NCBI GenBank assembly: GCA_012031225.1
Contig: JAAUTZ010000022.1
Coordinates: forward strand, 1-43,265
Reading direction: 5' to 3'
Source: Chloroflexaceae bacterium
GTDB lineage: Bacteria; Chloroflexota; Chloroflexia; Chloroflexales; Chloroflexaceae
Length of the DNA: 43,265 nt
Position 1 is the first letter of the stretch, and every line of letters begins with the position of its first letter. Below, one piece after another: positions 12,818 to 42,902 of the stretch. A model generated the notes under the pieces. That model did not search any database and had not been told where the DNA came from. It saw nothing but the letters and a program-made list of their open reading frames with translations. The translations under genes were made by a program, and so were the position numbers.

Positions 12818-13831
12818 CTACTCCACAAACGCATTCGTATACGCCTGCTCGACTTCAATCGGGCTTTGGAGCAAGTTGAGATCGAGCAAGAATTGGTGTG
12901 ACTCGGCCCACATTGTTTCGGGCATTGCGCCGAGCCGCGGGCTTGTCCAGTAGGGCAGGCTCTCTTGCAAAACCACCCGCTCAAATTCAGGCGTACTCAG
13001 ATTGGCTTCTGGAATGAACGCAAGGCTGATCTCGAAGGCCTCATCGGGGTTCTCCAGCGTGTCGCGTAGCCCGCGCATCGAAGCCTCCACAAAACCTTGC
13101 ACCAATTCGGGGCGTTCGGCAATCAGCTGCTCACTCACGATCAGCCCATCCGCCACCAGCGGGAAAAAGTCTGCCACGCGCAAGACACTTGCGCCACCGG
13201 TTGCTTCGCGCAGGCGGACTGGCTCGTTCATGGCATAGCCAGCGGCAATATCTATGCTATCCTCCAGCACCAGCTGGAACTGGCTAAAGCCAACTTCCTG
13301 CACATTCAGGTCGCGCTCCTGCTGATCGCTGGCGTAGAGCAGGGCTAGCAGCGCGTAGTAGCTTGCGCCGAAGCGGCCCGGAATGCCGATCTGTAGCCCT
13401 TGTAGATCCGTCGGGCTAGCGAGTTGCACATCCTCTTTGCCAAAGAAAACCACTGGAAACTGTTGGTATTGCTGCATCACCATTTGCACCGGAATGCCCT
13501 GCTGCCGCGCCAGCATCACTGACAGCCCGCTGCCGTGCGCGAAGATCGGCGCATCGGCCGGAGCGGTTGCAGCGCGTTGAATCGTATCGGTCTCAAAGTT
13601 GTAGTCGAACACCACATCAAGGCCCACCTCACGGTAGTAGCCCTTCTGCTGGGCCACATAGAATGGCGCGAACTGCACATTCGGAATGTACGACAGGGCC
13701 AGCGTCACGGTGGTTAGCTCTGGCTCGGTTGGGTTTGCCGGAGCTGCCGGAGCCGCGCCGCCACATGCCACCAATATCAACACGAGACCTAACAGGAGGC
13801 TGTGCTGAAGCATCATCTTAACCTTAAGCAT
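12818..13831 (-). CDS. ribY: riboflavin ABC transporter substrate-binding lipoprotein
   Basis: The 337-residue protein starts with a lipoprotein signal (LLLGLVLILVAC, lipid-modified Cys about residue 23) and an Ala/Pro linker, then an NMT1/THI5-like periplasmic-type binding domain (LALSYIPNVQFAPFYVAQQK, KGYYREVGLDV). This fold serves pyrimidine precursors, taurine and riboflavin. The FMN riboswitch at the head of the operon and the adjacent permease point to riboflavin (RibY of RibXY, known from Chloroflexi). The operon carries no ATPase gene, as is usual for ribXY. It ends the transcript that starts near 15161. Confidence 0.85.
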   Translation of the reverse strand: MLKVKMMLQHSLLLGLVLILVACGGAAPAAPANPTEPELTTVTLALSYIPNVQFAPFYVAQQKGYYREVGLDVVFDYNFETDTIQRAATAPADAPIFAHGSGLSVMLARQQGIPVQMVMQQYQQFPVVFFGKEDVQLASPTDLQGLQIGIPGRFGASYYALLALLYASDQQERDLNVQEVGFSQFQLVLEDSIDIAAGYAMNEPVRLREATGGASVLRVADFFPLVADGLIVSEQLIAERPELVQGFVEASMRGLRDTLENPDEAFEISLAFIPEANLSTPEFERVVLQESLPYWTSPRLGAMPETMWAESHQFLLDLNLLQSPIEVEQAYTNAFVE

Positions 13832-13915
13832 ACGTACATCTTCTCCTTTTTTAGCTGTACAAACTATAGCTGCGTCGTTGACACGCCTTGCCGATGCGCC
13901 GTCATACGGGTGGGT

Positions 13916-14821
13916 TTAATCCGACCAGTGAACGATAACCCGCTCAAGCCACTCTACCACTTGGTACAGAGTGAGCGTGATAATAACGAGCGTGAGGATC
14001 GCCACAAACATCAGGGGTGTATCGAATAGGCCCCGCGCAATGTTGATCAGTGCGCCTAAGCCATCGCGCCCCGCCACAAATTCACCGACCACCGCGCCGG
14101 TGGTGGCGAGGGCCAAGCCGGTGCGAATGCCAGCAAACATCACCGGCAGCGCAAGTGGGAATTCGACATAACGCACCATCTGCCAGCGCGAAGCCCCACT
14201 GATCAGGGCCATCTCGCGTAGCTCACGCGGGATCTGACGCAGCGCAACCAGCGTACTCATGAGGATCGGGAAGAAGGTGATCAAGGCCGCAACCAGTATC
14301 TTGGCGTGGATGCCCGTGCCAAACCAGAGGATCAGCAGCGGCGCAATGGCAATGATCGGCACCGCTTGCGAGGCAGCTAGGAGCGGTGCGGTGGCGCGTT
14401 CGAGCCAGCGCAGCCGGAACAGCAAGTAGCCGAGTAGCGTGCCTGCAAGAAGTGCTAACGCAAAGCCGCCGAGTGCTTCCGTCAACGTTACGAGCGTGTG
14501 GTGGAGCAGTAGCCCATTGCTTGCGGCACCGATAAACCGGTGCAGCACGAGTAGCGGTGAAGGGAGCGTGTAGGGCTGGTAGCCGCCGATCCATACGAGC
14601 AGCTGCCACCCCAGCACCACTAACACGAGTGCGAGCGGAAAGCTGAAGCGATTCCGCCAGCCCTGCCCGCGTTTACGCCGCATCGGGTGCAGGGCGTGTG
14701 CTGACTGATCCGTTAGGGGCGACTGGGCTGATTGTACCGACTGGGCTGATTGTACCGACTGCGCCGACTGCGCCGACTGTCCGTGTAGTGTGGGGACGAT
14801 TTGCTGCGTGGGTTGCTGCAT
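13916..14821 (-). CDS. ribX: riboflavin ABC transporter permease
   Basis: The 301-residue inner-membrane protein has about six helices of the BPD_transp_1 family and the cytoplasmic EAA-type loop that contacts an ATPase (EMALISGASRWQMVRYVEFP). The N-terminus is a Gln-Ser-Ala/Val repeat from in-phase 9-bp units. AAGGAG at 14833-14838 lies eleven bases upstream of the ATG, supporting this start; Met47 (MRRKRG) is an alternative. The gene follows the FMN riboswitch and precedes ribY by 84 bases. Regulation is probably repression when FMN is abundant. The ATPase must be supplied from elsewhere. Confidence 0.85.
   Translation of the reverse strand: MQQPTQQIVPTLHGQSAQSAQSVQSAQSVQSAQSPLTDQSAHALHPMRRKRGQGWRNRFSFPLALVLVVLGWQLLVWIGGYQPYTLPSPLLVLHRFIGAASNGLLLHHTLVTLTEALGGFALALLAGTLLGYLLFRLRWLERATAPLLAASQAVPIIAIAPLLILWFGTGIHAKILVAALITFFPILMSTLVALRQIPRELREMALISGASRWQMVRYVEFPLALPVMFAGIRTGLALATTGAVVGEFVAGRDGLGALINIARGLFDTPLMFVAILTLVIITLTLYQVVEWLERVIVHWSD
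14721..14774 (-). repeat. 9/18-bp tandem repeat coding the Gln-Ser N-terminus of RibX
   Basis: Two perfect 18-bp copies (GACTGGGCTGATTGTACC on the + strand) are followed by two copies of GACTGCGCC. The period is a multiple of three, so copy-number changes keep the frame and only lengthen or shorten the QSA/QSV repeat. Confidence 0.85.
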
Positions 14822-14996: not shown

Positions 14997-15020
14997 GCAT
15001 GGCACGCCTTGCTGTATACC

Positions 15021-15145
15021 AACCTTCTTCCATCCAGACTGTTACGGTCGGCTTCGGAATCACACCGGAATCCTGCCTTGCGGCTCGCGGGCTACCCCTG
15101 AAGGAGATTACCGCCGATCGGGAATTGCACCCTGCCCCGAAGGTT
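15021..15145 (-). promoter_or_regulatory. FMN riboswitch (RFN element)
   Basis: The - strand carries the conserved RFN blocks in order: CTTCGGGGCAGGGTG, AATTCCCGATCGGCGGTAAT, AGCCCGCGAGCC, GATTCCGGTGTGATTCCGAA and GCCGACCGTAACAGTCTGG. P1 closes perfectly between AACCTTC (15145-15139) and GAAGGTT (15027-15021). The aptamer binds flavin mononucleotide and controls ribX-ribY downstream. A TPP riboswitch was considered because of the THI5-like protein but its signature is absent. Confidence 0.95.
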
Positions 15146-15167
15146 ACGTGTATTTAGATTGCCTATC

Positions 15168-31700: not shown

Positions 31701-32432
31701 CTACTCCTGTTCGCGCACAAAACGCAACACGCGGAAGGCTTCGGCGTAGGCATACCCCAATGGTTGCCCGGCTTCGGCGTTGCGCTCGCGCAGCCACTCG
31801 GCGGCTTCGGCAACGTTTTGCGATACGTGGCACAGCAATGCGGCCAGCTTGCGCTCAATCGTTGCCGATATATCCACAAAGGTATCCGGCTGCAACGTCA
31901 GGTTGAGATACAGTTCGTCTACGTGATGGGGTTCGTAGCCTTCGGCCAGCAGCTCGGGAAAGATCGGGCGGGTCTCTGCGCTAGGGAACACCGCATACAC
32001 GGTTGCTTCGCCTGCCGCCCGATGATCGGGATGATTGATATAGCCGCTATGCACAAAGACTGCCGTCGGGTCTTGGCAGACTACCCGATCTGGGCGCACC
32101 TCGCGGATCAGACGGGTCAGGTCGCGGCGCAGTTCCAACGTCGGCTGCAAGGTTCCGTCGCGGTAGCCCAGAAAGCGCACATCCGTTACGCCCACTGCCG
32201 CCGCCGCCGCCCGTTGCTCAGCCACCCGAGTCTGCACCAGTTGTTTCAAATCCACGTCGGGGGCATTGCTGCCCGCCTGCCCATCGGTCACGATGCAATA
32301 GGCGACGTATGCCCCTTCTTGCACCCACCGTGCCACACTGCCCGCCACCCCAAAATCAATGTCATCGGGGTGGGCGGCAACCACCAGCACACGCTTCGGA
32401 ACGATATACTCCTGTGCGTTTTGTTGTATCAT
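31701..32432 (-). CDS. PIG-L/LmbE-family deacetylase
   Basis: The 243-residue protein is a zinc-dependent N-deacetylase of the family that includes GlcNAc-PI deacetylase, MshB and BshB. The metal motif AHPDDIDFG (H21, D23, D24) and the second site HPDH (H134-H137) are intact. Members act on sugar N-acetyl groups in thiol or lipid biosynthesis, or on other amides. No bacillithiol or mycothiol genes are adjacent, so the substrate is open. The start at 32432 sits seven bases after a -10-like box, suggesting a leaderless message. Confidence 0.88.
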   Translation of the reverse strand: MIQQNAQEYIVPKRVLVVAAHPDDIDFGVAGSVARWVQEGAYVAYCIVTDGQAGSNAPDVDLKQLVQTRVAEQRAAAAAVGVTDVRFLGYRDGTLQPTLELRRDLTRLIREVRPDRVVCQDPTAVFVHSGYINHPDHRAAGEATVYAVFPSAETRPIFPELLAEGYEPHHVDELYLNLTLQPDTFVDISATIERKLAALLCHVSQNVAEAAEWLRERNAEAGQPLGYAYAEAFRVLRFVREQE

Positions 32433-32485: not shown

Positions 32486-33160
32486 TTGGTACACTTGCAC
32501 ATAGAACAACTGGTTGGTTTGTGCGTAACGCGACTGGATACGATTCATACTGCCCGCGAACACGCCCTAAAGATTTCGCGTAGCCTGATCCAGCAGTGCG
32601 CCCGCACGATCCGTGCGGCCCATCGGGGCGAGTATGGGCATGCGGCCACGCTGCTGGCTGAAGCGGGCACGACTGCCACCGAGCTACGCACCGCAGTTGC
32701 CGATCAGCCCTTGCTGATGGGGGCGGGCTATTTGCAAGATGCCCTCAAGGAGTATGCTGAGGCAGCTCTCGTGTATGCCTTTCTCACCGATCAGCTTGCG
32801 CCCACCGCCGATGCGCTCGGTGTTGACCCTGCCGCTTACCTGAACGGCCTCGCCGAAGCCGCCAGCGAACTGCGCCGGGCCATCCTTGATCGCCTGCGCC
32901 GCGATGACCTAGCCCAGAGCGAACGGCTACTGGCGATTATGGACGAAGTGTACAGTCTGCTTGTCACCGTAGATTACCCGGATGCCGTGACAGGTGGCCT
33001 CCGCCGCACCACGGATGCCCTGCGGGCCGTGCTAGAGCGAACCCGCGGCGATCTGACGACAGCCCTGCGCCAGCAACGCCTGATGCAGCAGCTGGCTCGG
33101 CTCGATCCCGACGGGCTGCCCAGCGGCGCAACCCTGCCCGACCTCGACGGGGCGGAGTGA
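32486..33160 (+). CDS. translin-family protein
   Basis: The 224-residue, nearly all-helical protein matches the translin/TRAX family: AREHALKISRSLIQQCARTIRAAHRGEY, quoted by its key parts AREHALKISR and IRAAHRGEY, then PLLMGAGYLQDALKEYAEA with the acidic patch, YLNGLAEAASELRRAILDRL and YPDAVTGGLRRTTDALRAVLE, cited as YPDAVTGGLRR. In eukaryotes translin and TRAX form an octamer (C3PO) that cuts RNA; archaeal and bacterial homologues are little studied. The TTG start at 32486 follows a G-run but is uncertain. It is divergent from the PIG-L gene and followed after 22 bases by the ART-like gene. Confidence 0.85.
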   Translation: MVHLHIEQLVGLCVTRLDTIHTAREHALKISRSLIQQCARTIRAAHRGEYGHAATLLAEAGTTATELRTAVADQPLLMGAGYLQDALKEYAEAALVYAFLTDQLAPTADALGVDPAAYLNGLAEAASELRRAILDRLRRDDLAQSERLLAIMDEVYSLLVTVDYPDAVTGGLRRTTDALRAVLERTRGDLTTALRQQRLMQQLARLDPDGLPSGATLPDLDGAE

Positions 33161-33182
33161 GGGAGCCTGAGTAGTATTGGTA

Positions 33183-33566
33183 ATGACGATTGATCTGAGC
33201 GATCCTATCGTGTATCGGGTGATGTGGCCCGATGAACACCCACAAGCACATGTAAGTGGGATTTGGGCAAGAAATCCAGCCCGTCGCGTGCATCCCCAAA
33301 GACACGTTTCACATGGTACAGTAGAAAGTGACAATTGGATTTCGACGACACGCAATATGCTGTGGGCAATATCATGGCAGATTGCTGATCAAGTACCGAT
33401 CTATGTTATTGATTTACGTGGCGTGCAAGCTACCATTCTCGATCTGACCATTCCTGTCAATACAAGTGGATGGCATCCCCGTTATCGGCAACTTGCGCTG
33501 TGTGCAGCTGAAGTGTTAGTAGATACGTATATCCCTGCTGATGCAATTGTTGGGACAATTCCATAG
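33183..33566 (+). CDS. small protein with ADP-ribosyltransferase-like pattern
   Basis: The 127-residue protein begins with a strand carrying YRVM (R12), has SDNWISTTRN (STT at 54-56) followed by a helix, then strands PIYVIDLRG and ILDLTI, and ends AAEVLVDTYIPADAIVG (E110). An Arg, a Ser-Thr-Thr and a Glu in this order are the layout of R-S-E ADP-ribosyltransferases and of DUF7587-type toxin domains. The match is my inference from pattern. The ATG at 33183 lacks a close ribosome-binding site; TTG 33177 is an alternative. Base composition is AT-richer than upstream genes. It lies between the translin gene and the duplicated protein, which starts 28 bases after its stop. Confidence 0.5.
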   Translation: MTIDLSDPIVYRVMWPDEHPQAHVSGIWARNPARRVHPQRHVSHGTVESDNWISTTRNMLWAISWQIADQVPIYVIDLRGVQATILDLTIPVNTSGWHPRYRQLALCAAEVLVDTYIPADAIVGTIP

Positions 33567-33594
33567 GTAGTGTATGATGCAAAAGAGGAATGCG

Positions 33595-34266
33595 ATGATC
33601 ACCGTTTTGCAGCCGCTTGCGACGATCCGCCATGAGTGTGAGGCGGAAGATGGATTCTTGATCGAGTTGCGGTTGGGCAATTTTCTGCCGCAACGTTGGC
33701 ACGAGCTGCAAGCAGCGTTGAATGCGTATCGAGAACAGATCCATGATACCGATCAAATGCATCGCTTGGTTGCCGACTGTCTGTATGGGCTTGATCTTGA
33801 ATTCCATGCCGCACTGCACACGCATCGCAATCGGCCCCATTATGCCGATGTCGTGCAGGCTCAACACACCCTGCAACAGATCATTACGGCTTTCGTTACC
33901 CCTGCGGATAATCTAGCGTTTGCTGATGAGAGTAAACCAGAGTACATCATTCGACGGGCATGTAGAGAAACGAGTGGCGTTCTTGCGGATCTCCATCAAG
34001 GCCACTTTGATTATTCCCAATCGTTGCCCTTGCTCCAAGCGCTACAAGCGTGTCAGGTTGCTGTCGCTGCGAGCGATACGCTGCGGCGTGCATTTGTAGG
34101 CGATCTCTACCGTCTCGATTGGGCATTGCGTGAAGCCGTCTCGACCCTACGTGGACACCCTCAGTACGATCAACTCGTAGCGACCCAATTGGCTTGCTCC
34201 GAGTATATCGTCGCCTTGTTCATGCCTGATATTGATCTCCCTTCATCTCTTGTAACTCAAATGTAA
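33595..34266 (+). CDS. unknown protein with two tandem helical repeats
   Basis: The 223-residue protein consists of two copies of a unit of about 91 residues (11-101 and 119-210). Aligned positions include IR-x2-C / IR-x2-C, L-x2-G-x-F in both, VADCLYGLDLEFHAALHTHR against VGDLYRLDWALREAVSTLR, P-x-Y and a closing I-x-A-F / I-V-A-L-F. I know no named family. AGAGG six bases before ATG 33595 fixes the start. It is 28 bases past the ART-like gene, so it could be its antitoxin or immunity partner. Codon use is AT-richer than in the housekeeping genes. Confidence 0.6.
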   Translation: MITVLQPLATIRHECEAEDGFLIELRLGNFLPQRWHELQAALNAYREQIHDTDQMHRLVADCLYGLDLEFHAALHTHRNRPHYADVVQAQHTLQQIITAFVTPADNLAFADESKPEYIIRRACRETSGVLADLHQGHFDYSQSLPLLQALQACQVAVAASDTLRRAFVGDLYRLDWALREAVSTLRGHPQYDQLVATQLACSEYIVALFMPDIDLPSSLVTQM

Positions 34267-34541
34267 CTCCCCATGCGTACCATGCGGATAATGGTAAAAT
34301 AGGGTAAACTATTGTTGTAGTGGCAAAACGAGTGAGCCAACAACCGAATTGCGTGGACGTTGCTTGTCCCTCCGCACGGTCGCGTTGCGCTCCCCTTTGG
34401 TGTGGCTACGGTATGCCACGCCACGTAAGCTCTGGTGCTTGAAAGGATCACAGTCGGTATTCACTAGCGGTCAATGGAACAACGGAACAACGGCACAACG
34501 GAAGAACACACTTATTGGTCTATACAACAAGGAGCAGTGAC
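34267..34541 (+). other. upstream region of the DUF3141 operon
   Basis: No gene is seen. It holds an AT-rich box (TAAAAT, TAAACT near 34294-34310) without a good -35, a hairpin GGTGTGGC/GCCACGCC at 34399-34422 and three copies of an 8-bp repeat (GGAACAAC, GGAACAAC, GGCACAAC) at 34476-34499. The operon promoter is therefore not fixed. Confidence 0.5.
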
Positions 34542-36827
34542 ATGGCAACCCCACCCACTGAAGAGACCACCCAAACGATGCAATCGCCCGTCCCGTCCGC
34601 CCCCCCAACCAACGGTGCTACGGCACCGATCACCGGCAGCACCAACGGGACGCAAGCCCCGCCGGTAGCTCCCCAAGCACAACCTTCGCAAGGTAGTAGC
34701 CCAATGATGGCACTACCTTTTTTTAATCTCATGCGCGAGTTTTGGGATTACTACATTGATGCTACCCAGCGCACGGTGATGTTTTACGACGTGCTGCGCC
34801 AGCGCGGGAATCAGTTCTTTGAACACGTTGCCGCCGACCAGCCGCCCGTGCTCGCCTTCGAGTACGAGAAGGTTATGGATGGCAAAGACTTGCCACATCC
34901 ATCGAACTACTACATGTTGCGGATCATCCCCAACAAAGGGCAGGAGCTTGACCCGGCCAAACGTCCCTATGTCATCATTGACCCCCGCGCTGGCCACGGC
35001 CCCGGCATCGGCGGCTTCAAGGAATCGTCGCAGATCGGCGTTGCGCTAGGCAATGGGCATCCGGTCTATTTCGTCGGCTTCCGCCCCTTCCCCGAACCGG
35101 GCCAGAAGCTCGAAAATGTAACCTACACCGAAGCCGAGTTCTTGCGCGAGGTGAAGCGTCGCCACCCCGATGCACCCAAGCCAGTTGTCATTGGCAACTG
35201 TCAAGCTGGGTGGGCCGTAGCGATGCTGGCAGCGATAGAGCCTGACTTGATGGGCCCGATCATTATGAATGGTGCGCCACTCTCCTACTGGGGCGGCAAA
35301 GAGGGCAAAGACCCAATGCGCTATCTCGGCGGTTTGAATGGCGGCTCGTGGGCAGCCTCGTATGCCTCCGATCTGGGCGATGGCGTATTTGACGGAGCCA
35401 ATCTGGTTGCCAACTTTGAAAACCTCAATCCGACCAACACCCTCTGGAGCAAGCAGTACAACGTCTATGCCAACATTGACACCGAGCCAGAGCGTTACCT
35501 CGAATTTGAGAAGTGGTGGCAGGGCTACTTCTTTATGACCCGCGACGAGATGGAGTTTATCGTCAACAACCTGTTTGTTGCCAACAAGCTCGAAGCGGCT
35601 CAGGTCAAACTTGGCAATACCACCGTCAGCCTGCGCGACATCACCGCCCCCATCGTGGTCTTCGCCTCGCACGGCGACAACATCACCCCGCCGCAGCAGG
35701 CCTTGAACTGGCTGCTCGATGTGTACAAGAGCGATCAAGATATTCTCGATGACCGCCAAGTGATTGTCTACACCGTACACAAGAACATCGGGCACTTGGG
35801 CATCTTCGTCTCCGGCAAGGTTGCCCAGCGTGAATACGCCTCGATGTTTGGTACGCTGGACTTCATCGAGTCGTTGCCGCCGGGCTTGTATGAAATGATT
35901 ATCGAGGACAAGGCTCCCGATGCACCGCCCGACGAAGTGACCAACCTGCGCTACGATATTCGCTTTGAGGAGCGGCTACTGGACGACATCCGCAAGATGG
36001 ACGACTCCCGCGAAGACGAAGAGCTGTTCCCCGCCGTCTCGACGGTCTCTAAGCTGAACAAGCTCAACTACAAGCTGTTTCTCAGCCCCTACGTGCGAAT
36101 GATGACGACTCCGCAAATGGCAGCGTTCCGCCGCGAGACGCACCCCAATCGGCTCCAGCATTACATCTTCTCGAACAAGAACCCGTTTATGGGCTTGATC
36201 GCTATGTGGGCTGAAGCGGCTCGCAACAGCCGCCGGCCGGTGGACAAATCCAACCCCTACTGGCAGATGCAGGAAGTCTACTCAGGCCAGATCACAGCAA
36301 TGCTGGATGCCTACACCAATGTGCGCGACACCACGATGGAAGTGATGTTCAAATCCCTCTATGGGCCGACTGGGCTAGGCGGCATTCTGCCCGAACCCCT
36401 CACCACGCGCAAGGTGGAACACGATCCCGAAGTGCAAGCCCGCATTGAAGCAGACAATGCCCGCCTTGTGGCAATGACTGAAGAAGGCGGCTTTGTGGAA
36501 GGCTTTGCCCGGATCTTTATGTTGCTCTCCCGCGCCGACCGCGACGTGGAGCCGCAGGCCTTCATCCGCTCCCGCGAAGCGACCCAGAACCACTCCCGCC
36601 TCAGTGAGATTTCCTACGACGAATTGCGCCAGCGTACCTTCGAGCAGTTCTACATTCTGCACCTGAACTTCGATCCGGCGGTGCGGGCGTTGACGAAGCT
36701 GCTGCCCACCGAGCAGGATCGGCGTGATGCGCTGGAGTTGGCCAAGGAGATTGTGCTGCTGGGCGAGCCGAATGCTGAAGAGCAAAAGGTTCTCGCTATG
36801 CTGCACGAGGTCCTTGGGCTGAGCTAA
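34542..36827 (+). CDS. DUF3141 alpha/beta-hydrolase, PHA-synthase-like
   Basis: The 761-residue protein has a Pro/Thr/Ala-rich N-terminus (about 1-55), then an alpha/beta-hydrolase domain like PhaC. The nucleophile box is IGNCQAGW (Cys220 where a lipase has Ser, as in PHA synthases), with Asp379 in SHGDNITPP and His418 in GHLGIFVSG completing a plausible triad. A C-terminal region of about 330 residues is helical and particular to DUF3141 proteins. AAGGAG lies seven bases before ATG 34542. It leads a four-gene + strand operon with a phosphotransacylase, acetate kinase and FabI. It may make or transfer hydroxyacyl chains, but polymer synthesis is not proven for the family. Confidence 0.85.
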   Translation: MATPPTEETTQTMQSPVPSAPPTNGATAPITGSTNGTQAPPVAPQAQPSQGSSPMMALPFFNLMREFWDYYIDATQRTVMFYDVLRQRGNQFFEHVAADQPPVLAFEYEKVMDGKDLPHPSNYYMLRIIPNKGQELDPAKRPYVIIDPRAGHGPGIGGFKESSQIGVALGNGHPVYFVGFRPFPEPGQKLENVTYTEAEFLREVKRRHPDAPKPVVIGNCQAGWAVAMLAAIEPDLMGPIIMNGAPLSYWGGKEGKDPMRYLGGLNGGSWAASYASDLGDGVFDGANLVANFENLNPTNTLWSKQYNVYANIDTEPERYLEFEKWWQGYFFMTRDEMEFIVNNLFVANKLEAAQVKLGNTTVSLRDITAPIVVFASHGDNITPPQQALNWLLDVYKSDQDILDDRQVIVYTVHKNIGHLGIFVSGKVAQREYASMFGTLDFIESLPPGLYEMIIEDKAPDAPPDEVTNLRYDIRFEERLLDDIRKMDDSREDEELFPAVSTVSKLNKLNYKLFLSPYVRMMTTPQMAAFRRETHPNRLQHYIFSNKNPFMGLIAMWAEAARNSRRPVDKSNPYWQMQEVYSGQITAMLDAYTNVRDTTMEVMFKSLYGPTGLGGILPEPLTTRKVEHDPEVQARIEADNARLVAMTEEGGFVEGFARIFMLLSRADRDVEPQAFIRSREATQNHSRLSEISYDELRQRTFEQFYILHLNFDPAVRALTKLLPTEQDRRDALELAKEIVLLGEPNAEEQKVLAMLHEVLGLS

Positions 36828-36840
36828 TCCCATTATCCCA

Positions 36841-36870
36841 TCGGGCGGTTGCAATGGGGGAGCCGCCCGA
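36841..36870 (+). other. 8-bp hairpin in the first operon gap
   Basis: TCGGGCGG and CCGCCCGA pair over a 14-base loop just after the DUF3141 stop. No T-tract follows, so it may protect or process the upstream mRNA rather than end it. Confidence 0.5.
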
Positions 36871-36947
36871 GTCTGCTGATAGCTGACTGTTAGGAATCAA
36901 CACGCGAACTGGATCAAGCTGAATCTATCCGAACAGGAGGAGACTCT

Positions 36948-37940
36948 GTGAGCAGTGAACTGACACCCCAAACGAACGGCGAATCGCGCATTGTCCAGAT
37001 CATTGATACCTTTGATGGGTACGGTGAACTGATGAACAAGACCAAAGGCCTCGATCCGATTGTCACGACGGTTGCCTATCCGTGTGAAGCAACCGCACTG
37101 GAAGGCCCCCTTGATGCGGCTAAAGAGAACCTGATTGTGCCGATCCTGATTGGCCCCGAAAAGACGATCCGCGAGCTTGCCGAGCAGCACGGGCTAGACC
37201 TTACTGGCGTGCAGATCGAGGATGTGGAGTCGGCGACTGAATCAGCAGCGCGGGCGGTAGAGCTAGTCCGCACTGGTACGGCTGAAGCGGTGATGAAGGG
37301 CAGCCTGCACACCGACATTCTGATCACTGCTATCGTCAGTGGCGAGAAGGGCTTGCGCATGCCCGGTCGCCGCATCAGTCACGCCTTTGTGATGGACGTG
37401 CCAACCTACAACCGCCCCCTGATTATCTCCGACGGGGCGATCAACATTGCCCCCGATCTGAAGACCAAGCGCGACATTGTGCAGAATGCGATTGAGCTAG
37501 CCCACGCAATGGGCATTGAACTGCCGAAGGTTGCGGTGCTTGCCGCCGTCGAGATGGTTAACCCGGATATGCAGGCGACGCTTGATGCGGCAGCTCTGTG
37601 CAAGATGATGGATCGCAAGCAGATTACGGGCGGCATCATTGATGGGCCCCTCGCTTTCGATAATGCGATCAGCCGCGAAGCCGCCGAGACCAAGAAGATT
37701 GACTCGCCGGTGGCAGGCGATGCCGACATCCTGATCGCGCCCGATCTCGAGTCTGGCAATATGCTGGTGAAGCAGCTGATCTACCTTGCCCAAGCTGATG
37801 CGGCGGGGATTGTGCTGGGCGCACGCGCCCCCGTGATCCTCACCAGCCGCGCCGATGGAGTCCGCACGCGCATGGCTTCGTGTGCTGTTGCGGTGCTGAA
37901 GGCCCACCATCACCGCACCGCGAAAGTGGAGGTGCATTGA
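36948..37940 (+). CDS. phosphate acetyl/butyryltransferase
   Basis: The 330-residue enzyme swaps CoA for phosphate on a short acyl-CoA, giving acyl-phosphate. It is a single PTA_PTB domain without the N-terminal part of long Pta proteins; the ends of the fold read IVPILIGPEKTIRELAEQHG and LTSRADGVRTRMASCAVAVL. AGGAGG sits seven bases before a GTG start. It is followed with a one-base overlap (TGATG) by the kinase gene, so the two act as a pair to conserve acyl-CoA energy as ATP. Whether the acyl group is acetyl, butyryl or longer cannot be told. Confidence 0.88.
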   Translation: MSSELTPQTNGESRIVQIIDTFDGYGELMNKTKGLDPIVTTVAYPCEATALEGPLDAAKENLIVPILIGPEKTIRELAEQHGLDLTGVQIEDVESATESAARAVELVRTGTAEAVMKGSLHTDILITAIVSGEKGLRMPGRRISHAFVMDVPTYNRPLIISDGAINIAPDLKTKRDIVQNAIELAHAMGIELPKVAVLAAVEMVNPDMQATLDAAALCKMMDRKQITGGIIDGPLAFDNAISREAAETKKIDSPVAGDADILIAPDLESGNMLVKQLIYLAQADAAGIVLGARAPVILTSRADGVRTRMASCAVAVLKAHHHRTAKVEVH

Positions 37941-39202
37941 TGGCGAGCGAGTCGATTCTGGTGATCAATGCTGGCTCCTCCAGCATCAAGTTCACGCTGT
38001 TCGATGTTGAGGCGGGCGAGGTGAGCCTGCACTACGATGGCCGCATCCAGCCCGATACGATCAGCTTTGACCTGTTTCTCCAGCCGAGTGTCGGCATTGA
38101 TAAGGAGTATGGCGGGCAAGTTGAAGGGATTGGCACTGCGCCCAAGTTTAAGGCGAAAGACCGCGACAACGAGCTAGTGTATGAGGAGACATGGGACGCA
38201 GGCGAGCGCAGCAGTGGCCACCAAGTTGCGCTGGAAAAGCTGATGAATTGGCTGGACGACCACTTGGGCGATACCACCTTGATCGGCGTAGGCCATCGTG
38301 TAGTGCATGGCGGCACGGAGTATGCGGCCCCCACCATCGTGAATGATGCGGTGCTGCAACAGCTCGGAGATTACACGGTGCTGGCTCCGTTGCACCAGCC
38401 CAACTGTCTAGCCGGCATTCGGGCAATGCTCGCAATGCGCCCGGACTTGCCGCAGGTGGCCTGCTTCGATACTGCCTTCCACCGCAACCACCCGCTCGTT
38501 GCCGATCAGTTTGCGTTGCCCTATGAGTTGTATGAAGAGGGCGTGCGCCGCTATGGTTTTCACGGGCTGTCCTACGCCTACATTGCCCACACCCTGCCCA
38601 CGATTGCCCCTGAGCTAGCGGATGGGCGCGTTGTGGTGGCGCACTTGGGCAGCGGTGCGAGTATGTGTGCGATCAAGGGCGGGCAGAGCATGGATAGCAC
38701 GATGGGCTTCACCGCCCTTGATGGCTTGCCGATGGGTACGCGCTGTGGCAACCTTGATCCGGGGGCGGTGCTGTATATGCTCCAAGAAAAGGGTATGGAT
38801 GCCAAGCAGATCGAGGATGTGCTGTATCGCCGTTCGGGGCTGCTTGGTCTCTCCGGCATCAGCAACGATATGCGTGATCTGGAGCACAACCCCGACCCGC
38901 GTGCGGCGCAGGCGATTGACTACTTCATCTATCGCATCACCCGCGAACTGGGCGCACTAGCGGCGGCGATTGGCGGGATTGACGCGCTGGTCTTCACTGC
39001 GGGCATTGGCGAGAACTCGGACATGATCCGCGCCCGCGTGTGCCGCGCTGCGGCGTGGCTCGGCATTGAATTGGACGAAGCGGCAAACAGCCAACGCGCC
39101 CAACGCATCTCCACCGCGAGCAGCAAGGTGGCGGTGTATGTCATTCCGACGGATGAGGAGAAGATGATCGCGCTGGATACGCTGCGCTTGCTGCGCCCGT
39201 AG
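37940..39202 (+). CDS. ackA: acetate kinase (acetate/propionate kinase family)
   Basis: The 420-residue enzyme transfers phosphate between acyl-phosphate and ADP. It has the actin-like fold signatures VINAGSSSIKF, GHRVVHGG, DTAFHRNHP, YGFHGLSYAYI, HLGSGASMCAIKGG, GFTALDGLPMGTRCGNLDPG and VFTAGIGENS. An insert near residues 60-80 (DRDNELVYEETWD) is a little unlike E. coli AckA. The start overlaps the transacylase stop. A strong hairpin follows the gene. The operon context suggests that it works on the product of the adjacent transacylase. Confidence 0.93.
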   Translation: MASESILVINAGSSSIKFTLFDVEAGEVSLHYDGRIQPDTISFDLFLQPSVGIDKEYGGQVEGIGTAPKFKAKDRDNELVYEETWDAGERSSGHQVALEKLMNWLDDHLGDTTLIGVGHRVVHGGTEYAAPTIVNDAVLQQLGDYTVLAPLHQPNCLAGIRAMLAMRPDLPQVACFDTAFHRNHPLVADQFALPYELYEEGVRRYGFHGLSYAYIAHTLPTIAPELADGRVVVAHLGSGASMCAIKGGQSMDSTMGFTALDGLPMGTRCGNLDPGAVLYMLQEKGMDAKQIEDVLYRRSGLLGLSGISNDMRDLEHNPDPRAAQAIDYFIYRITRELGALAAAIGGIDALVFTAGIGENSDMIRARVCRAAAWLGIELDEAANSQRAQRISTASSKVAVYVIPTDEEKMIALDTLRLLRP

Positions 39203-39217
39203 CCTGTCGCTGCATCA

Positions 39218-39252
39218 CGGGTGGGGCAGGCGGTGTAGGTTTGCCCCACCCG
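39218..39252 (+). terminator. 11-bp hairpin between ackA and fabI
   Basis: CGGGTGGGGCA and TGCCCCACCCG pair perfectly over a 13-base loop. No T-tract follows, so it may be a partial terminator or an mRNA stabiliser. A separate fabI promoter is not obvious. Confidence 0.5.
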
Positions 39253-39324
39253 CTGGTGGGTTCCTGTTGATGCTGAGGTTGCATCGGTGGATAGATAACC
39301 AGATAGCTAAAGGAGCAATGTCTC

Positions 39325-40101
39325 ATGACGCTTGCAATTGATCTACATGGCAAGAAAGCCCTTGTTGTCGGGATTGCCAACGAAAGCAGCATCGCCTATG
39401 CGTGTGCCAAAGCCTTTCGACAGGCGGGCGCGGAATTGGCGATCACGTACCTGAATGAGAAATCCGAGCGGTTTGTACGTCCGGTTGCCGAAGAACTCGA
39501 AGCCGCTATCTTTATGCCGATGGACGTGCTGAAAGAGGGCGAACTCGAAGTAGTGTTTGAGCGCATCACGCAGGAGTGGGGCCAGCTAGATGTGCTGCTG
39601 CACTCGATTGCGTTTGCCCCGCGTGAGGACCTGCACGGGCGCGTGATTGACACCTCGCTCGAAGGCTTCAAGATCGCTATTGATGTCTCCGCGCACTCGT
39701 TTGTCCGCATGGCCCGCCTTGCCGAGCCGCTGATGAAAGAGCGCGGCGGCAGCATGATGACGCTGACCTACTACGGCTCGACCCGCGTGATTGACACCTA
39801 CAATATGATGGGGCCGGTCAAAGCCTGCCTCGAAGCCCTGACCCGCGAAGTCGCTTCGGAAGTGGGCATGCACGGCATCCGCGTCAATGCGATCTCGCCG
39901 GGCCCCGTGAAGACGCGGGCGGCATCCGGCATTGATGATTTCGACAAGCTGCTCGACGAAGCCGCGCAGAAGGCTCCCCAGCGCAGCCTCATCACGATTG
40001 AGGATGTTGGCCCACTGGCGGCATTCCTTGCCAGCGATTTAGCCCATGCAATCACGGGCGAGACGATCTTCGTGGATCACGGCTACAACATCGTGGCCTA
40101 G
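39325..40101 (+). CDS. fabI: enoyl-ACP reductase, FabI type
   Basis: The 258-residue short-chain dehydrogenase-like enzyme uses NAD(P)H to reduce trans-2-enoyl-ACP. It has the atypical nucleotide loop VVGIANESSIAYACAKAF, LHSIAFAPR and the Y-x6-K pair Tyr159/Lys166 (TYNMMGPVK); the upstream Tyr149/150 matches the substrate-shielding Tyr of FabI. AAGGAG lies nine bases before the ATG. As the last gene of the DUF3141 operon it may serve that pathway rather than, or besides, bulk fatty acid synthesis. Confidence 0.92.
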   Translation: MTLAIDLHGKKALVVGIANESSIAYACAKAFRQAGAELAITYLNEKSERFVRPVAEELEAAIFMPMDVLKEGELEVVFERITQEWGQLDVLLHSIAFAPREDLHGRVIDTSLEGFKIAIDVSAHSFVRMARLAEPLMKERGGSMMTLTYYGSTRVIDTYNMMGPVKACLEALTREVASEVGMHGIRVNAISPGPVKTRAASGIDDFDKLLDEAAQKAPQRSLITIEDVGPLAAFLASDLAHAITGETIFVDHGYNIVA

Positions 40102-40830: not shown

Positions 40831-41775
40831 TCAAAGTAGGACCAACTGCTCGCCAGAGAATGAGCGAGCTGAGTGGATCGGCTGTAGATGCGCGAATTGG
40901 ACAATTGTATCAGCAACATAGCGTGCTTGCTGGACGGGAACAGCATTGCCGATCATCTGCTCAACATCGGATTTTGTTCCTGCGAAGATAAAGTCTGGGG
41001 GGAATGTTTGAATCAGGCTACGCTCTACAGTAGTAAGCGGGCGTATATCAGGTGAAATAGGGGCAGTATCGCCCGGATGACTCGTATAATTGGGTGGGAT
41101 CGGGCGATTGACACCTCGAATAGTTGGGCTTGGTTCATCAATACTAAAGACTGCTCGGCGTTGATAGCTTCGAGGATGCCTGTAGTAATGTTCGATACCT
41201 AAACGTGTTCCAAAGTAATCGCGGAGCGTTAGCGGTTTTGGAGCCAGTCTCTGCTGAAGTAGCCAGAATAACTCATTATCTGCACCGCCGTAGTGCCCGA
41301 TAGCAAACAATCGCTTGCGATACTGAGGGACACCGCACAGGCTAGCATCAAGAATCATCTCAGTCAGACCATATCCTGCTTCGCGCAGCATTTGACGAGC
41401 GTTATACCATGTTGCGCTGGTCGCTGCGCGGGCGACATTCTCCATAACAAACCATTTAGGACGAAGATAGGCAACAATTTCAGCGAAGGTTATGGTGAGA
41501 AACGAACGTCCTTGTTGTTCATCCCGCTTTCCAGCCGATGAGAAATCTTGGCAGGGTGGCCCACCGATGATCATATCAGGTGCAATATCGTTCAAAAGGT
41601 CAGTATGTGCTCGCCAGTGATGTAAATCACACGCAATCGCTGGGTGGGAGAAGTTTTGTTGATACACATTGAGTGCTGCGTGCCAATGCTCAAATGCTGC
41701 ACACAGCGTATATCCCGCTTGCACAAAACCCAACGACAATCCGCCACATCCTGCGAAGAGGTCAATAATACGCAT
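40831..41775 (-). CDS. DNA (cytosine-5) methyltransferase
   Basis: The 314-residue enzyme methylates C5 of cytosine in DNA. Motifs are in canonical order: I DLFAGCGGLSLG, IV GGPPCQDFSSAGKR with nucleophile Cys75, VI MENVARA, VIII QYRKRLFAIGH, a short target-recognition region (about 170-270) and X MIGNAVP. AAGG precedes the ATG. It begins nine bases after the stop of the HindVP-type endonuclease, so both form one R-then-M operon. The site is inferred from the partner to be near GRCGYC. The gene is AT-richer than its neighbours, as expected for a mobile restriction system. Confidence 0.93.
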   Translation of the reverse strand: MRIIDLFAGCGGLSLGFVQAGYTLCAAFEHWHAALNVYQQNFSHPAIACDLHHWRAHTDLLNDIAPDMIIGGPPCQDFSSAGKRDEQQGRSFLTITFAEIVAYLRPKWFVMENVARAATSATWYNARQMLREAGYGLTEMILDASLCGVPQYRKRLFAIGHYGGADNELFWLLQQRLAPKPLTLRDYFGTRLGIEHYYRHPRSYQRRAVFSIDEPSPTIRGVNRPIPPNYTSHPGDTAPISPDIRPLTTVERSLIQTFPPDFIFAGTKSDVEQMIGNAVPVQQARYVADTIVQFAHLQPIHSARSFSGEQLVLL

Positions 41776-41784
41776 CACTGAACC

Positions 41785-42864
41785 TTACATAAACAGATCG
41801 GGTGAATTGACGAGAATTGCGTCGAGCCGCCGCTCTGGGCTGAGAAATCGCTGCCCATTGCCCAAAATGATCTGACCAACCGCAGTTTTGTGGATGCGTG
41901 GATGGGTCAACTCTGGGCAGGTCATGTAATGGTGGGTACGTCGCCCGCTAATAGCGAACGCTTTATCATTCTTGGTGTCATAGCTCAAATGGTCAAGAAT
42001 AGCTCTATAATTAATTTTTCCATTGTTGGCAAAGTCCCACAACATCTTCATTAACCACACAACAGATCGCCCGATTCGCTTGAATGTATCGGGACGCTTA
42101 TCACTTTCTGCTTCTTCTACCATAAGTTGTGCAATAGCGAGGTTGCTCCATACAAATATGTCAAAGCAGTTGTCTGCCAATATGCTTGATTTGCCTTGTG
42201 TTTTCCAGATTGGCTGCACGAGTAATGGTAGCTGTCCGTAATGATGCGTTCCAACTAGCGCACGTACACCTTGAAGCAAATTCGGCAAATGCTTCTTAAC
42301 GAGGGCAATATCAGTCCAATCTGAAATTGGCGTGCATGTTGGTGCAAGTCGTTGATGCAGCACAGCTTGATCTGCGTGGGTGCTATACCAATTAGCAATA
42401 CTGAGACATACATACACAATGGTGTCTGGGCGTACAACAAGTTCACTGCCATACCACTTGTCACCAAGCTCACACGTCGTATTATCAGGCAGTGCAGTCA
42501 GCTTGATTTCTAATGCACGAATACTATCACGCCGAGGCGTGCTAAGGTCTTGGATCACAACGTCAATTCGTGGTATCGTCTCAATCACAAATGGGTTATA
42601 GGGTGCAAAGGGTTGTTCAAAACCGAAGTGAATAGTTGGCTGCAACGGTTCAAGTCCAAAGAGGTCTTGAACACTGACATATCCTTGCACAATTGAGTTC
42701 ATCGGACTGACGGAAAGGTAAACAGGTTGTAGTGATTGATGAAACATATAGCAAGCAAGAGCAACCGGAAATGAACTGTTAAACTTATTCTTGCTCCAGT
42801 GCTCAGGGAGCGCAAAATTACGATTGGAATTGGTGATGCCAAACAGCCCTGCTTGCGATGTCAT
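41785..42864 (-). CDS. type II restriction endonuclease, HindVP family
   Basis: The 359-residue protein opens with GLFGITNSNRNFALPEHWSK and NKFNSSFPVALACYM, which I recognise as the N-terminal signature of the HindVP/HgiDI family cutting GRCGYC. A possible nuclease core is IPRIDVVIQDL followed by ALEIKLTALPD, a D-x(n)-ExK pattern. It precedes a C5-cytosine methyltransferase in one transcript. GAGAAG lies eight bases before ATG 42864; an ATG at 42879 is an alternative. HgiDI comes from Herpetosiphon, another member of the Chloroflexi. Low GC marks it as probably acquired. Confidence 0.8.
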   Translation of the reverse strand: MTSQAGLFGITNSNRNFALPEHWSKNKFNSSFPVALACYMFHQSLQPVYLSVSPMNSIVQGYVSVQDLFGLEPLQPTIHFGFEQPFAPYNPFVIETIPRIDVVIQDLSTPRRDSIRALEIKLTALPDNTTCELGDKWYGSELVVRPDTIVYVCLSIANWYSTHADQAVLHQRLAPTCTPISDWTDIALVKKHLPNLLQGVRALVGTHHYGQLPLLVQPIWKTQGKSSILADNCFDIFVWSNLAIAQLMVEEAESDKRPDTFKRIGRSVVWLMKMLWDFANNGKINYRAILDHLSYDTKNDKAFAISGRRTHHYMTCPELTHPRIHKTAVGQIILGNGQRFLSPERRLDAILVNSPDLFM

Positions 42865-42902
42865 ACGGTTACTTCTCATTATGTTCAGAACTAATCTGTA
42901 CT

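What the first reader, a model, noticed from the sequence alone, without database searches (positions are those of the whole stretch)
34542..40101. DUF3141 - phosphotransacylase - acetate kinase - FabI operon
A PhaC-like hydrolase with a Cys nucleophile (Cys220, Asp379, His418) and a large private C-terminal domain is tied to enzymes that interconvert acyl-CoA, acyl-phosphate and ATP and to an enoyl-ACP reductase. I recall similar four-gene sets in proteobacteria that store polyhydroxyalkanoate, but no pathway has been established. It may recover energy from acyl chains or build or remodel a polyester or lipid.
Basis: partly seen in the sequence, partly recalled or inferred. Interest (0 to 1): 0.6.

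Follow-up and report, generated by a model that had tools for sequence, protein, structure and literature searches.

The report
PHA-linked acyl-CoA energy operon
In a photosynthetic green filamentous bacterium sits a four-gene operon, already known from many proteobacteria, whose enzymes probably turn stored bioplastic (polyhydroxybutyrate) into short fatty acids to make ATP and dispose of electrons when oxygen or light is missing; the pathway itself has not been shown in the laboratory.

Summary
The four genes are real and correctly placed: DUF3141 (34542-36827), phosphotransacylase (36948-37940), acetate kinase (37937-39202) and FabI (39325-40101). The Cys220/Asp379/His418 triad is invariant in 49 of 49 relatives, and the predicted fold matches PHA synthase (PhaC) best. 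The set is not new. Summers 1999 described ORF-pta-ackA-fabI in Sinorhizobium, and PhaC versions were reported in Burkholderia and Halomonas/Cobetia. Of 56 fully visible DUF3141 neighbourhoods, 25 carry all four genes. In four loci with a MaoC-phosphotransacylase fusion, a classical PhaC takes the DUF3141 slot. The host has its own phaE-phaC and one standalone MaoC hydratase; this operon holds its only phosphotransacylase and only acetate kinase. Bradyrhizobium copies carry FixK/FNR-type sites 66-93 nt upstream. Best reading (about 0.42): PHA is thiolysed to 3-hydroxybutyryl-CoA, dehydrated (MaoC), reduced (FabI), phosphorolysed and converted to butyrate (plus acetate) with ATP, as low-oxygen or dark fermentation of the store. 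No step is biochemically shown. New here: the operon in Chloroflexota, the DUF3141/PhaC exchange, and a pathway that uses every gene.

The parts
34542..36827 (+). DUF3141 protein (761 aa), PhaC-like alpha/beta hydrolase with Cys nucleophile, plus C-terminal helical extension
   Evidence: PF11339 815 bits; AF2 pLDDT 86; top Foldseek/VIA hits are PhaC, Z 25.0
35199..35201 (+). codon of nucleophile Cys220 in G-N-C-Q-[AG]-G-W box
   Evidence: C in 49/49 relatives
35676..35678 (+). codon of catalytic Asp379
   Evidence: D in 49/49; aligned to the PhaC region ending D-D-H-I
35793..35795 (+). codon of catalytic His418 (GHLGIFVS; own PhaC has GHIGMYVS)
   Evidence: H in 49/49; own PhaC sequence
36405..36824 (+). 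C-terminal TerB-like helical domain (residues 622-761)
   Evidence: Pfam TerB best 7.3e-6 in a relative, 0.025 in the window copy; AF2 pLDDT 93; 2h5n Z 10.1 over 105 residues, next chain 4.0
36948..37940 (+). phosphate acyltransferase (PTA/PTB family), phosphate-butyryltransferase-like; only PTA_PTB gene found in this genome
37937..39202 (+). acetate/propionate-family kinase; only one found in this genome
39325..40101 (+). FabI-type enoyl thioester reductase, second FabI of the genome, closer to proteobacterial operon FabIs than to its own paralogue
34267..34541 (+). upstream region; no FNR/FixK or PHO box recognised here

Best explanation
A module for energy-yielding fermentation of the PHA store. 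Proposed steps: (1) the DUF3141 enzyme, a PhaC relative, acts on PHA and CoA at the granule and, in the catabolic direction, releases (R)-3-hydroxybutyryl-CoA by thiolysis through an acyl-Cys220 intermediate; (2) a MaoC/PhaJ-type hydratase (fused to the phosphotransacylase in many relatives, a separate gene here) dehydrates it to crotonyl-CoA; (3) the FabI paralogue reduces crotonyl-CoA with NADH to butyryl-CoA; (4) the phosphotransacylase makes butyryl-phosphate; (5) the kinase makes ATP and butyrate. The same last two enzymes could also convert acetyl-CoA from a second monomer to acetate and ATP, so that two monomers give butyrate, 2 acetate and about 3 ATP with redox balance. Useful under low oxygen or in the dark, when respiration or photophosphorylation stops. 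Shown: genes, triad, fold class (predicted), co-occurrence, candidate regulatory sites in relatives. Inferred: every catalytic step, substrate and direction.
For: Fold and triad of PhaC. In four of four plasmid loci examined where an alpha/beta hydrolase lies in the cluster next to a MaoC-PTA fusion, it is a classical PhaC in the slot that DUF3141 holds elsewhere (loci). Full module fabI-DUF3141-MaoC/PTA-ackA in Methylorubrum populi, and the same four genes in Thiodictyon. MaoC-PTA fusion also in a genus of the window's own family. The host carries a MaoC hydratase homologous to the fusion's N-terminal domain and phaE-phaC. MaoC, FabI, PTA, Ack fill the steps 3HB-CoA to butyrate with none left over. 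PTA is nearest to phosphate butyryltransferase in the PDB (7vg9 9e-67; best Pta 9e-14). FabI here is a second copy, so not needed for housekeeping. TTGA-N6-TCAA sites 66-93 nt upstream in 18 Bradyrhizobium loci, also Ensifer and a betaproteobacterium (20/89 against 1.7% of background windows), related sites in Sinorhizobium and in PhaC versions of Paracoccus and Paraburkholderia. FnrN/FixK sites proposed before phbC (PMC4999443). B. diazoefficiens pta-ackA (blr3457-3458) strongly induced in a microaerobic phaR mutant (PMC10888616); other Bradyrhizobium genomes have one PTA besides large multi-domain hits, so this is probably the same operon. B. cenocepacia low-oxygen locus holds phbB and a phosphate acetyl/butyryl transferase (PMC6127331). 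Host is a Chloroflexales-type phototroph; PHA turnover in that order follows the day-night cycle (PMC7332563).
Against: The kinase keeps Val93 of acetate kinase (GHRVVHGG) in nearly all members, which by memory favours acetate over butyrate. In S. meliloti the operon is reported as phosphate-starvation induced, not low-oxygen induced (via PMC8231600 and PMC5789663); I found no PHO-box enrichment. The window itself has no recognisable FNR/FixK site and no adjacent MaoC. FabI enzymes normally use ACP thioesters. Relatives in the same family hold DUF3141-fabI and pta-ackA apart. 18 of 56 DUF3141 loci have none of the partners, so DUF3141 has some function without them. The FixK-site count is dominated by one genus. 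No enzyme was assayed.
Confidence: 0.42

Rival explanations
1. The module runs in the synthetic direction: Ack and PTA activate acetate, propionate or butyrate to acyl-CoA for PHA synthesis by DUF3141 or PhaC.
For: Proposed for the PhaC versions in Burkholderia and Cobetia/Halomonas (PMC8231600; PMC8686332). Kinase pocket looks acetate/propionate-type. Phototrophs assimilate acids.
Against: FabI works reductively, and enoyl reduction in this path only leads away from PHA; acid activation does not need it. FabI is the commonest partner of DUF3141 (34/56).
Confidence: 0.22
2. Lipid or phosphate-stress remodelling: a PhoB-controlled acyl-phosphate/FabI set that adjusts fatty acid supply or acetyl-phosphate, DUF3141 acting on a lipid.
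For: S. meliloti operon is co-transcribed and PhoB-induced (Summers 1999, cited in PMC8231600 and PMC5789663); neighbours include pstS/phoU in Thiodictyon, ugp and Na/Pi transporter genes in Rhodobacter.
Against: Closest fold and slot partner is PhaC, not a lipase. No PHO-box enrichment upstream. PHA synthesis is itself PhoB-induced in Acinetobacter (PMC7204398), so phosphate control does not argue against PHA.
Confidence: 0.15
3. Regulatory link: PTA makes acetyl-phosphate that activates PHA synthase, with DUF3141 as a regulatory or chain-modifying PhaC subunit.
For: Acetyl-phosphate activation of PHB synthase reported in Synechococcus (Miyake 1997 in PMC7204398); DUF3141 beside phaCAB in P. 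umsongensis (PMC8601165).
Against: Does not explain FabI, MaoC or the kinase. DUF3141 keeps an intact triad in all members.
Confidence: 0.08

Closest known systems
Sinorhizobium meliloti ORF-pta-ackA-fabI operon (Summers et al. 1999)
   Same: Gene content and order; S. meliloti pSymA carries DUF3141-pta-ackA-fabI
   Different: That operon is phosphate/PhoB induced; no such site seen in the window. Identity of its ORF with DUF3141 is inferred: the paper is not held and was read only through citing papers
Burkholderia sensu lato PhaC group D clusters (phaC - phaJ/pta fusion - ackA - fabI - phaB; PMC8231600) and Cobetia/Halomonas phaC1-fabI-bi-pta-ackA (PMC8686332)
   Same: Same PTA, Ack, FabI partners
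   Different: Classical PhaC (PF07167) in place of DUF3141; hydratase fused to PTA
PHA synthase PhaC (5t6o, 5hz2, 5xav, 9knj)
   Same: alpha/beta hydrolase core, Cys-Asp-His triad, VIA Z 23.5-25.0
   Different: No PhaC_N domain hit, 12-16% identity, extra C-terminal helical and TerB-like domains, GNCQ[AG]GW box
Clostridial ptb-buk butyrate pathway
   Same: Acyl-CoA to acyl-phosphate to acid plus ATP; PTA resembles Ptb
   Different: Kinase is acetate-kinase family, not butyrate kinase (86 bits against 382); FabI rather than Bcd/Etf
B. cenocepacia low-oxygen-activated (lxa) locus
   Same: phbB and a phosphate acetyl/butyryl transferase in a hypoxia-induced region (PMC6127331)
   Different: Larger locus; I did not find DUF3141 reported there

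Membership tests
Pfam DUF3141 (PF11339) | Score above gathering cut-off | tested here: met
   815 bits against 29.7
PHA synthase (PhaC) | alpha/beta hydrolase core with Cys-Asp-His triad | tested here: met
   49/49 conserved; Z 25.0 to PhaC, 20.9 to the best non-PhaC
PHA synthase (PhaC) | PhaC_N domain (PF07167) or NCBIfam PhaC cut-off | tested here: not met
   Only DUF3141 hit in Pfam; TIGR01836 32.7 bits against cut-off 365.3
PHA synthase (PhaC) | Polymerises 3-hydroxyacyl-CoA | not testable with these tools
   No assay
ORF-pta-ackA-fabI operon type | Four co-directional genes in this order | tested here: met
   same order in Rhodobacter, Sinorhizobium, Bradyrhizobium
ORF-pta-ackA-fabI operon type | PhoB-responsive promoter | tested here: inconclusive
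   No PHO box found in the window or enriched upstream in relatives; the motif of a distant phylum may differ
Phosphate butyryltransferase (TIGR02706) | Equivalog cut-off | tested here: not met
   314.9 bits against 410.5; it passes NF008852 and NF006045 instead
Acetate/propionate kinase | TIGR00016 cut-off; residues of the active site | tested here: met
   382.6 against 293.4; R91, V93, H180 equivalents kept
FabI | NF005717 cut-off, Tyr-x6-Lys motif | tested here: met
   415.6 against 337; YNMMGPVK in the sequence
TerB domain (C-terminal) | Pfam TerB cut-off | tested here: inconclusive
   Window copy E 0.025, 15.3 bits against 24.4; relatives to 7.3e-6; fold match Z 10.1

The most novel reading that the evidence does not exclude
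DUF3141 defines a second, catabolic branch of the PhaC family, dedicated to CoA-thiolysis of stored polyester, and with MaoC, FabI, PTA and Ack forms a dedicated 'PHA fermentation' pathway (polyester to butyrate and acetate, with ATP and NADH re-oxidation), spread horizontally among proteobacteria, desulfobacteria and phototrophic Chloroflexota for anoxic or dark survival.
Probability: 0.28. Interest if true: 0.7.

Novelty: new member of a known kind. Interest (0 to 1): 0.45.

Why it matters
How PHA stores are mobilised (hydrolysis or thiolysis) and whether they support fermentation is unsettled (PMC7147478). If the proposal holds, a widespread gene set annotated as a DUF, acetate metabolism and fatty acid synthesis is one pathway that lets respiring or phototrophic cells live on polyester without oxygen or light, and DUF3141 gets a function. 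It would also matter to bioplastic producers, as a drain on product.

Tried and rejected
PHO boxes upstream of DUF3141: no excess over random windows. FNR/FixK or PHO site in the window upstream region: none. Promoter and terminator scan of the operon: no more than in shuffles. A phasin-type role for the small gene after DUF3141 in Azospirillum: no Pfam hit. Butyrate-kinase identity of the kinase: rejected by scores. Foldseek alone on the C-terminal domain: nothing under E 0.001; VIA gave 2h5n; that 2h5n is a TerB-like protein is from memory. Original Summers 1999 paper is not held. Idea that the set is unique to this genome: rejected.

Full report
What is there. The window is one whole contig (C22) of a 4.2 Mb, 97% complete genome that has reaction-centre genes of the pufL/pufM kind. 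At 34542-40101 four co-directional genes encode DUF3141, a phosphotransacylase, an acetate/propionate-family kinase and a FabI.

DUF3141 is a PhaC relative. All 49 aligned proteins, from alpha-, beta-, gammaproteobacteria and desulfobacteria, keep G-N-C-Q-[A/G]-G-W, Asp379 and His418. The AlphaFold2 model (pLDDT 86) has PHA synthases as its first 14 Foldseek hits. By VIA-align the PhaC entries score Z 23.5-25.0; the next family, gastric lipase, 20.9. Sequence alone gives only a weak PhaC match, and there is no PhaC_N domain. A 2024 classification paper already places DUF3141 in one cluster with PHA synthase 5hz2 (PMC11878206). Residues 622-761 form a separate helical domain, TerB-like by Pfam in relatives and by fold (2h5n, Z 10.1, next 4.0).

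The gene set is widespread and already described. A scan of bacterial genomes found at least 576 relatives of DUF3141. Among the 56 of the best 80 loci with 6 kb on both sides, 25 carry all four genes within 5.5 kb, 34 carry FabI, 29 the kinase, 27 PTA and 18 none. Annotated examples: Rhodobacter, Sinorhizobium pSymA, Thiodictyon, Azospirillum, Methylorubrum. The literature holds the type: ORF-pta-ackA-fabI in S. meliloti, co-transcribed and phosphate-starvation induced (Summers 1999, not held; read through PMC8231600 and PMC5789663); phaC-phaJ/pta-ackA-fabI/phaB clusters in Burkholderia (PMC8231600); phaC1-fabI-bi-pta-ackA in Cobetia/Halomonas (PMC8686332).

Two findings tie it to PHA. First, the slot exchange: where a MaoC-PTA fusion lies with Ack and/or FabI in Sphingobium, Paracoccus, Legionella and Paraburkholderia plasmids, the adjacent hydrolase is a classical PhaC (PF07167), while Methylorubrum and Thiodictyon have DUF3141 with the same partners. 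Second, other DUF3141 genes sit in PHA loci: with phaC and a PhaR-type regulator in a Desulfocapsaceae contig, near phaE-phaC in another desulfobacterium, beside phaCAB in P. umsongensis (PMC8601165). The host itself has phaE-phaC.

Why a butyrate pathway. The fusion joins an (R)-enoyl-CoA hydratase to the phosphotransacylase. Between crotonyl-CoA (product of the first in the dehydrating direction) and butyryl-CoA (substrate of a butyryl-type second) only an enoyl reductase is missing, and that is FabI, the commonest partner. The window PTA is nearest to phosphate butyryltransferase among solved structures, though it fails the curated Ptb cut-off. In this host the hydratase is a separate gene, homologous to the fusion's N-terminal part, and another genus of the same family has the fusion. 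The host has one PTA, one acetate kinase and two FabI, so the operon supplies all phosphotransacylase/kinase capacity found; its FabI shares 59% median identity with proteobacterial operon FabIs and 46% with its own paralogue. The kinase keeps the valine typical of acetate kinases, which speaks for acetate; one PTA/Ack pair may serve acetyl-CoA as well.

Regulation. TTGA-N6-TCAA sites lie upstream of DUF3141 in 20 of 89 loci against 1.7% of background windows, at -66 to -93 in 18 Bradyrhizobium loci, plus Ensifer and a betaproteobacterium. Outside Bradyrhizobium, near-matches within 160 nt occur in 13 of 71 loci against 3.9% background; these loci are not independent. PhaC versions of Paracoccus and Paraburkholderia have exact sites in the intergenic region, the latter beside cytochrome bd genes. 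In B. diazoefficiens the pta-ackA pair is strongly induced in a phaR mutant under 0.5% oxygen (PMC10888616). The window has no such site; Chloroflexota motifs are unknown to me.

Evolution. In 400 genomes of the phylum only the window genome and three of a related genus have full-length DUF3141. The tree groups these four together (support 99), apart from the other rows. Those relatives carry DUF3141-fabI and, in two of the three, a separate pta-ackA pair; the window genome has all four in one operon. This fits horizontal gain followed by joining or splitting; the direction was not resolved.

Verdict. I commit to PHA fermentation with moderate confidence; acid assimilation for PHA synthesis is the strongest rival, and both can be told apart by simple assays.

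Noticed in passing
15018-15148 (-): FMN riboswitch (RF00050, 97.8 bits) upstream of an ABC permease and an NMT1/THI5-like binding protein (12818-14821), probably a riboflavin or precursor transporter.
   Followed up: partly
40831-42879 (-): C-5 cytosine methylase and HindVP-type restriction endonuclease (PF09519 439 bits) in a stretch of lower GC (0.45-0.50), next to the operon: a type II restriction-modification pair, probably acquired.
   Followed up: partly
L151:3595-5070: MaoC-PTA fusion in a genome of the window's own family (G353), showing that the fusion exists in this phylum.
   Followed up: yes
L015:12324-12797 and relatives near the operon in L017, L060, L046, L079, L080: Small protein (about 158 aa) without Pfam match recurs within a few kb of DUF3141 in several alphaproteobacteria.
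   Followed up: partly
L012:6597-9550: phaE-phaC (class III) followed by a gene of 174 aa that may be a granule-associated protein.
   Followed up: partly
32486-34266 (+): Two uncharacterised genes upstream of the operon; the first matches NCBIfam PRK14562-type models (294 bits), the second has no Pfam or NCBIfam hit.
   Followed up: no
31701-32432 (-): PIG-L family deacetylase resembling BshB1 of bacillithiol synthesis, below the equivalog cut-off.
   Followed up: no
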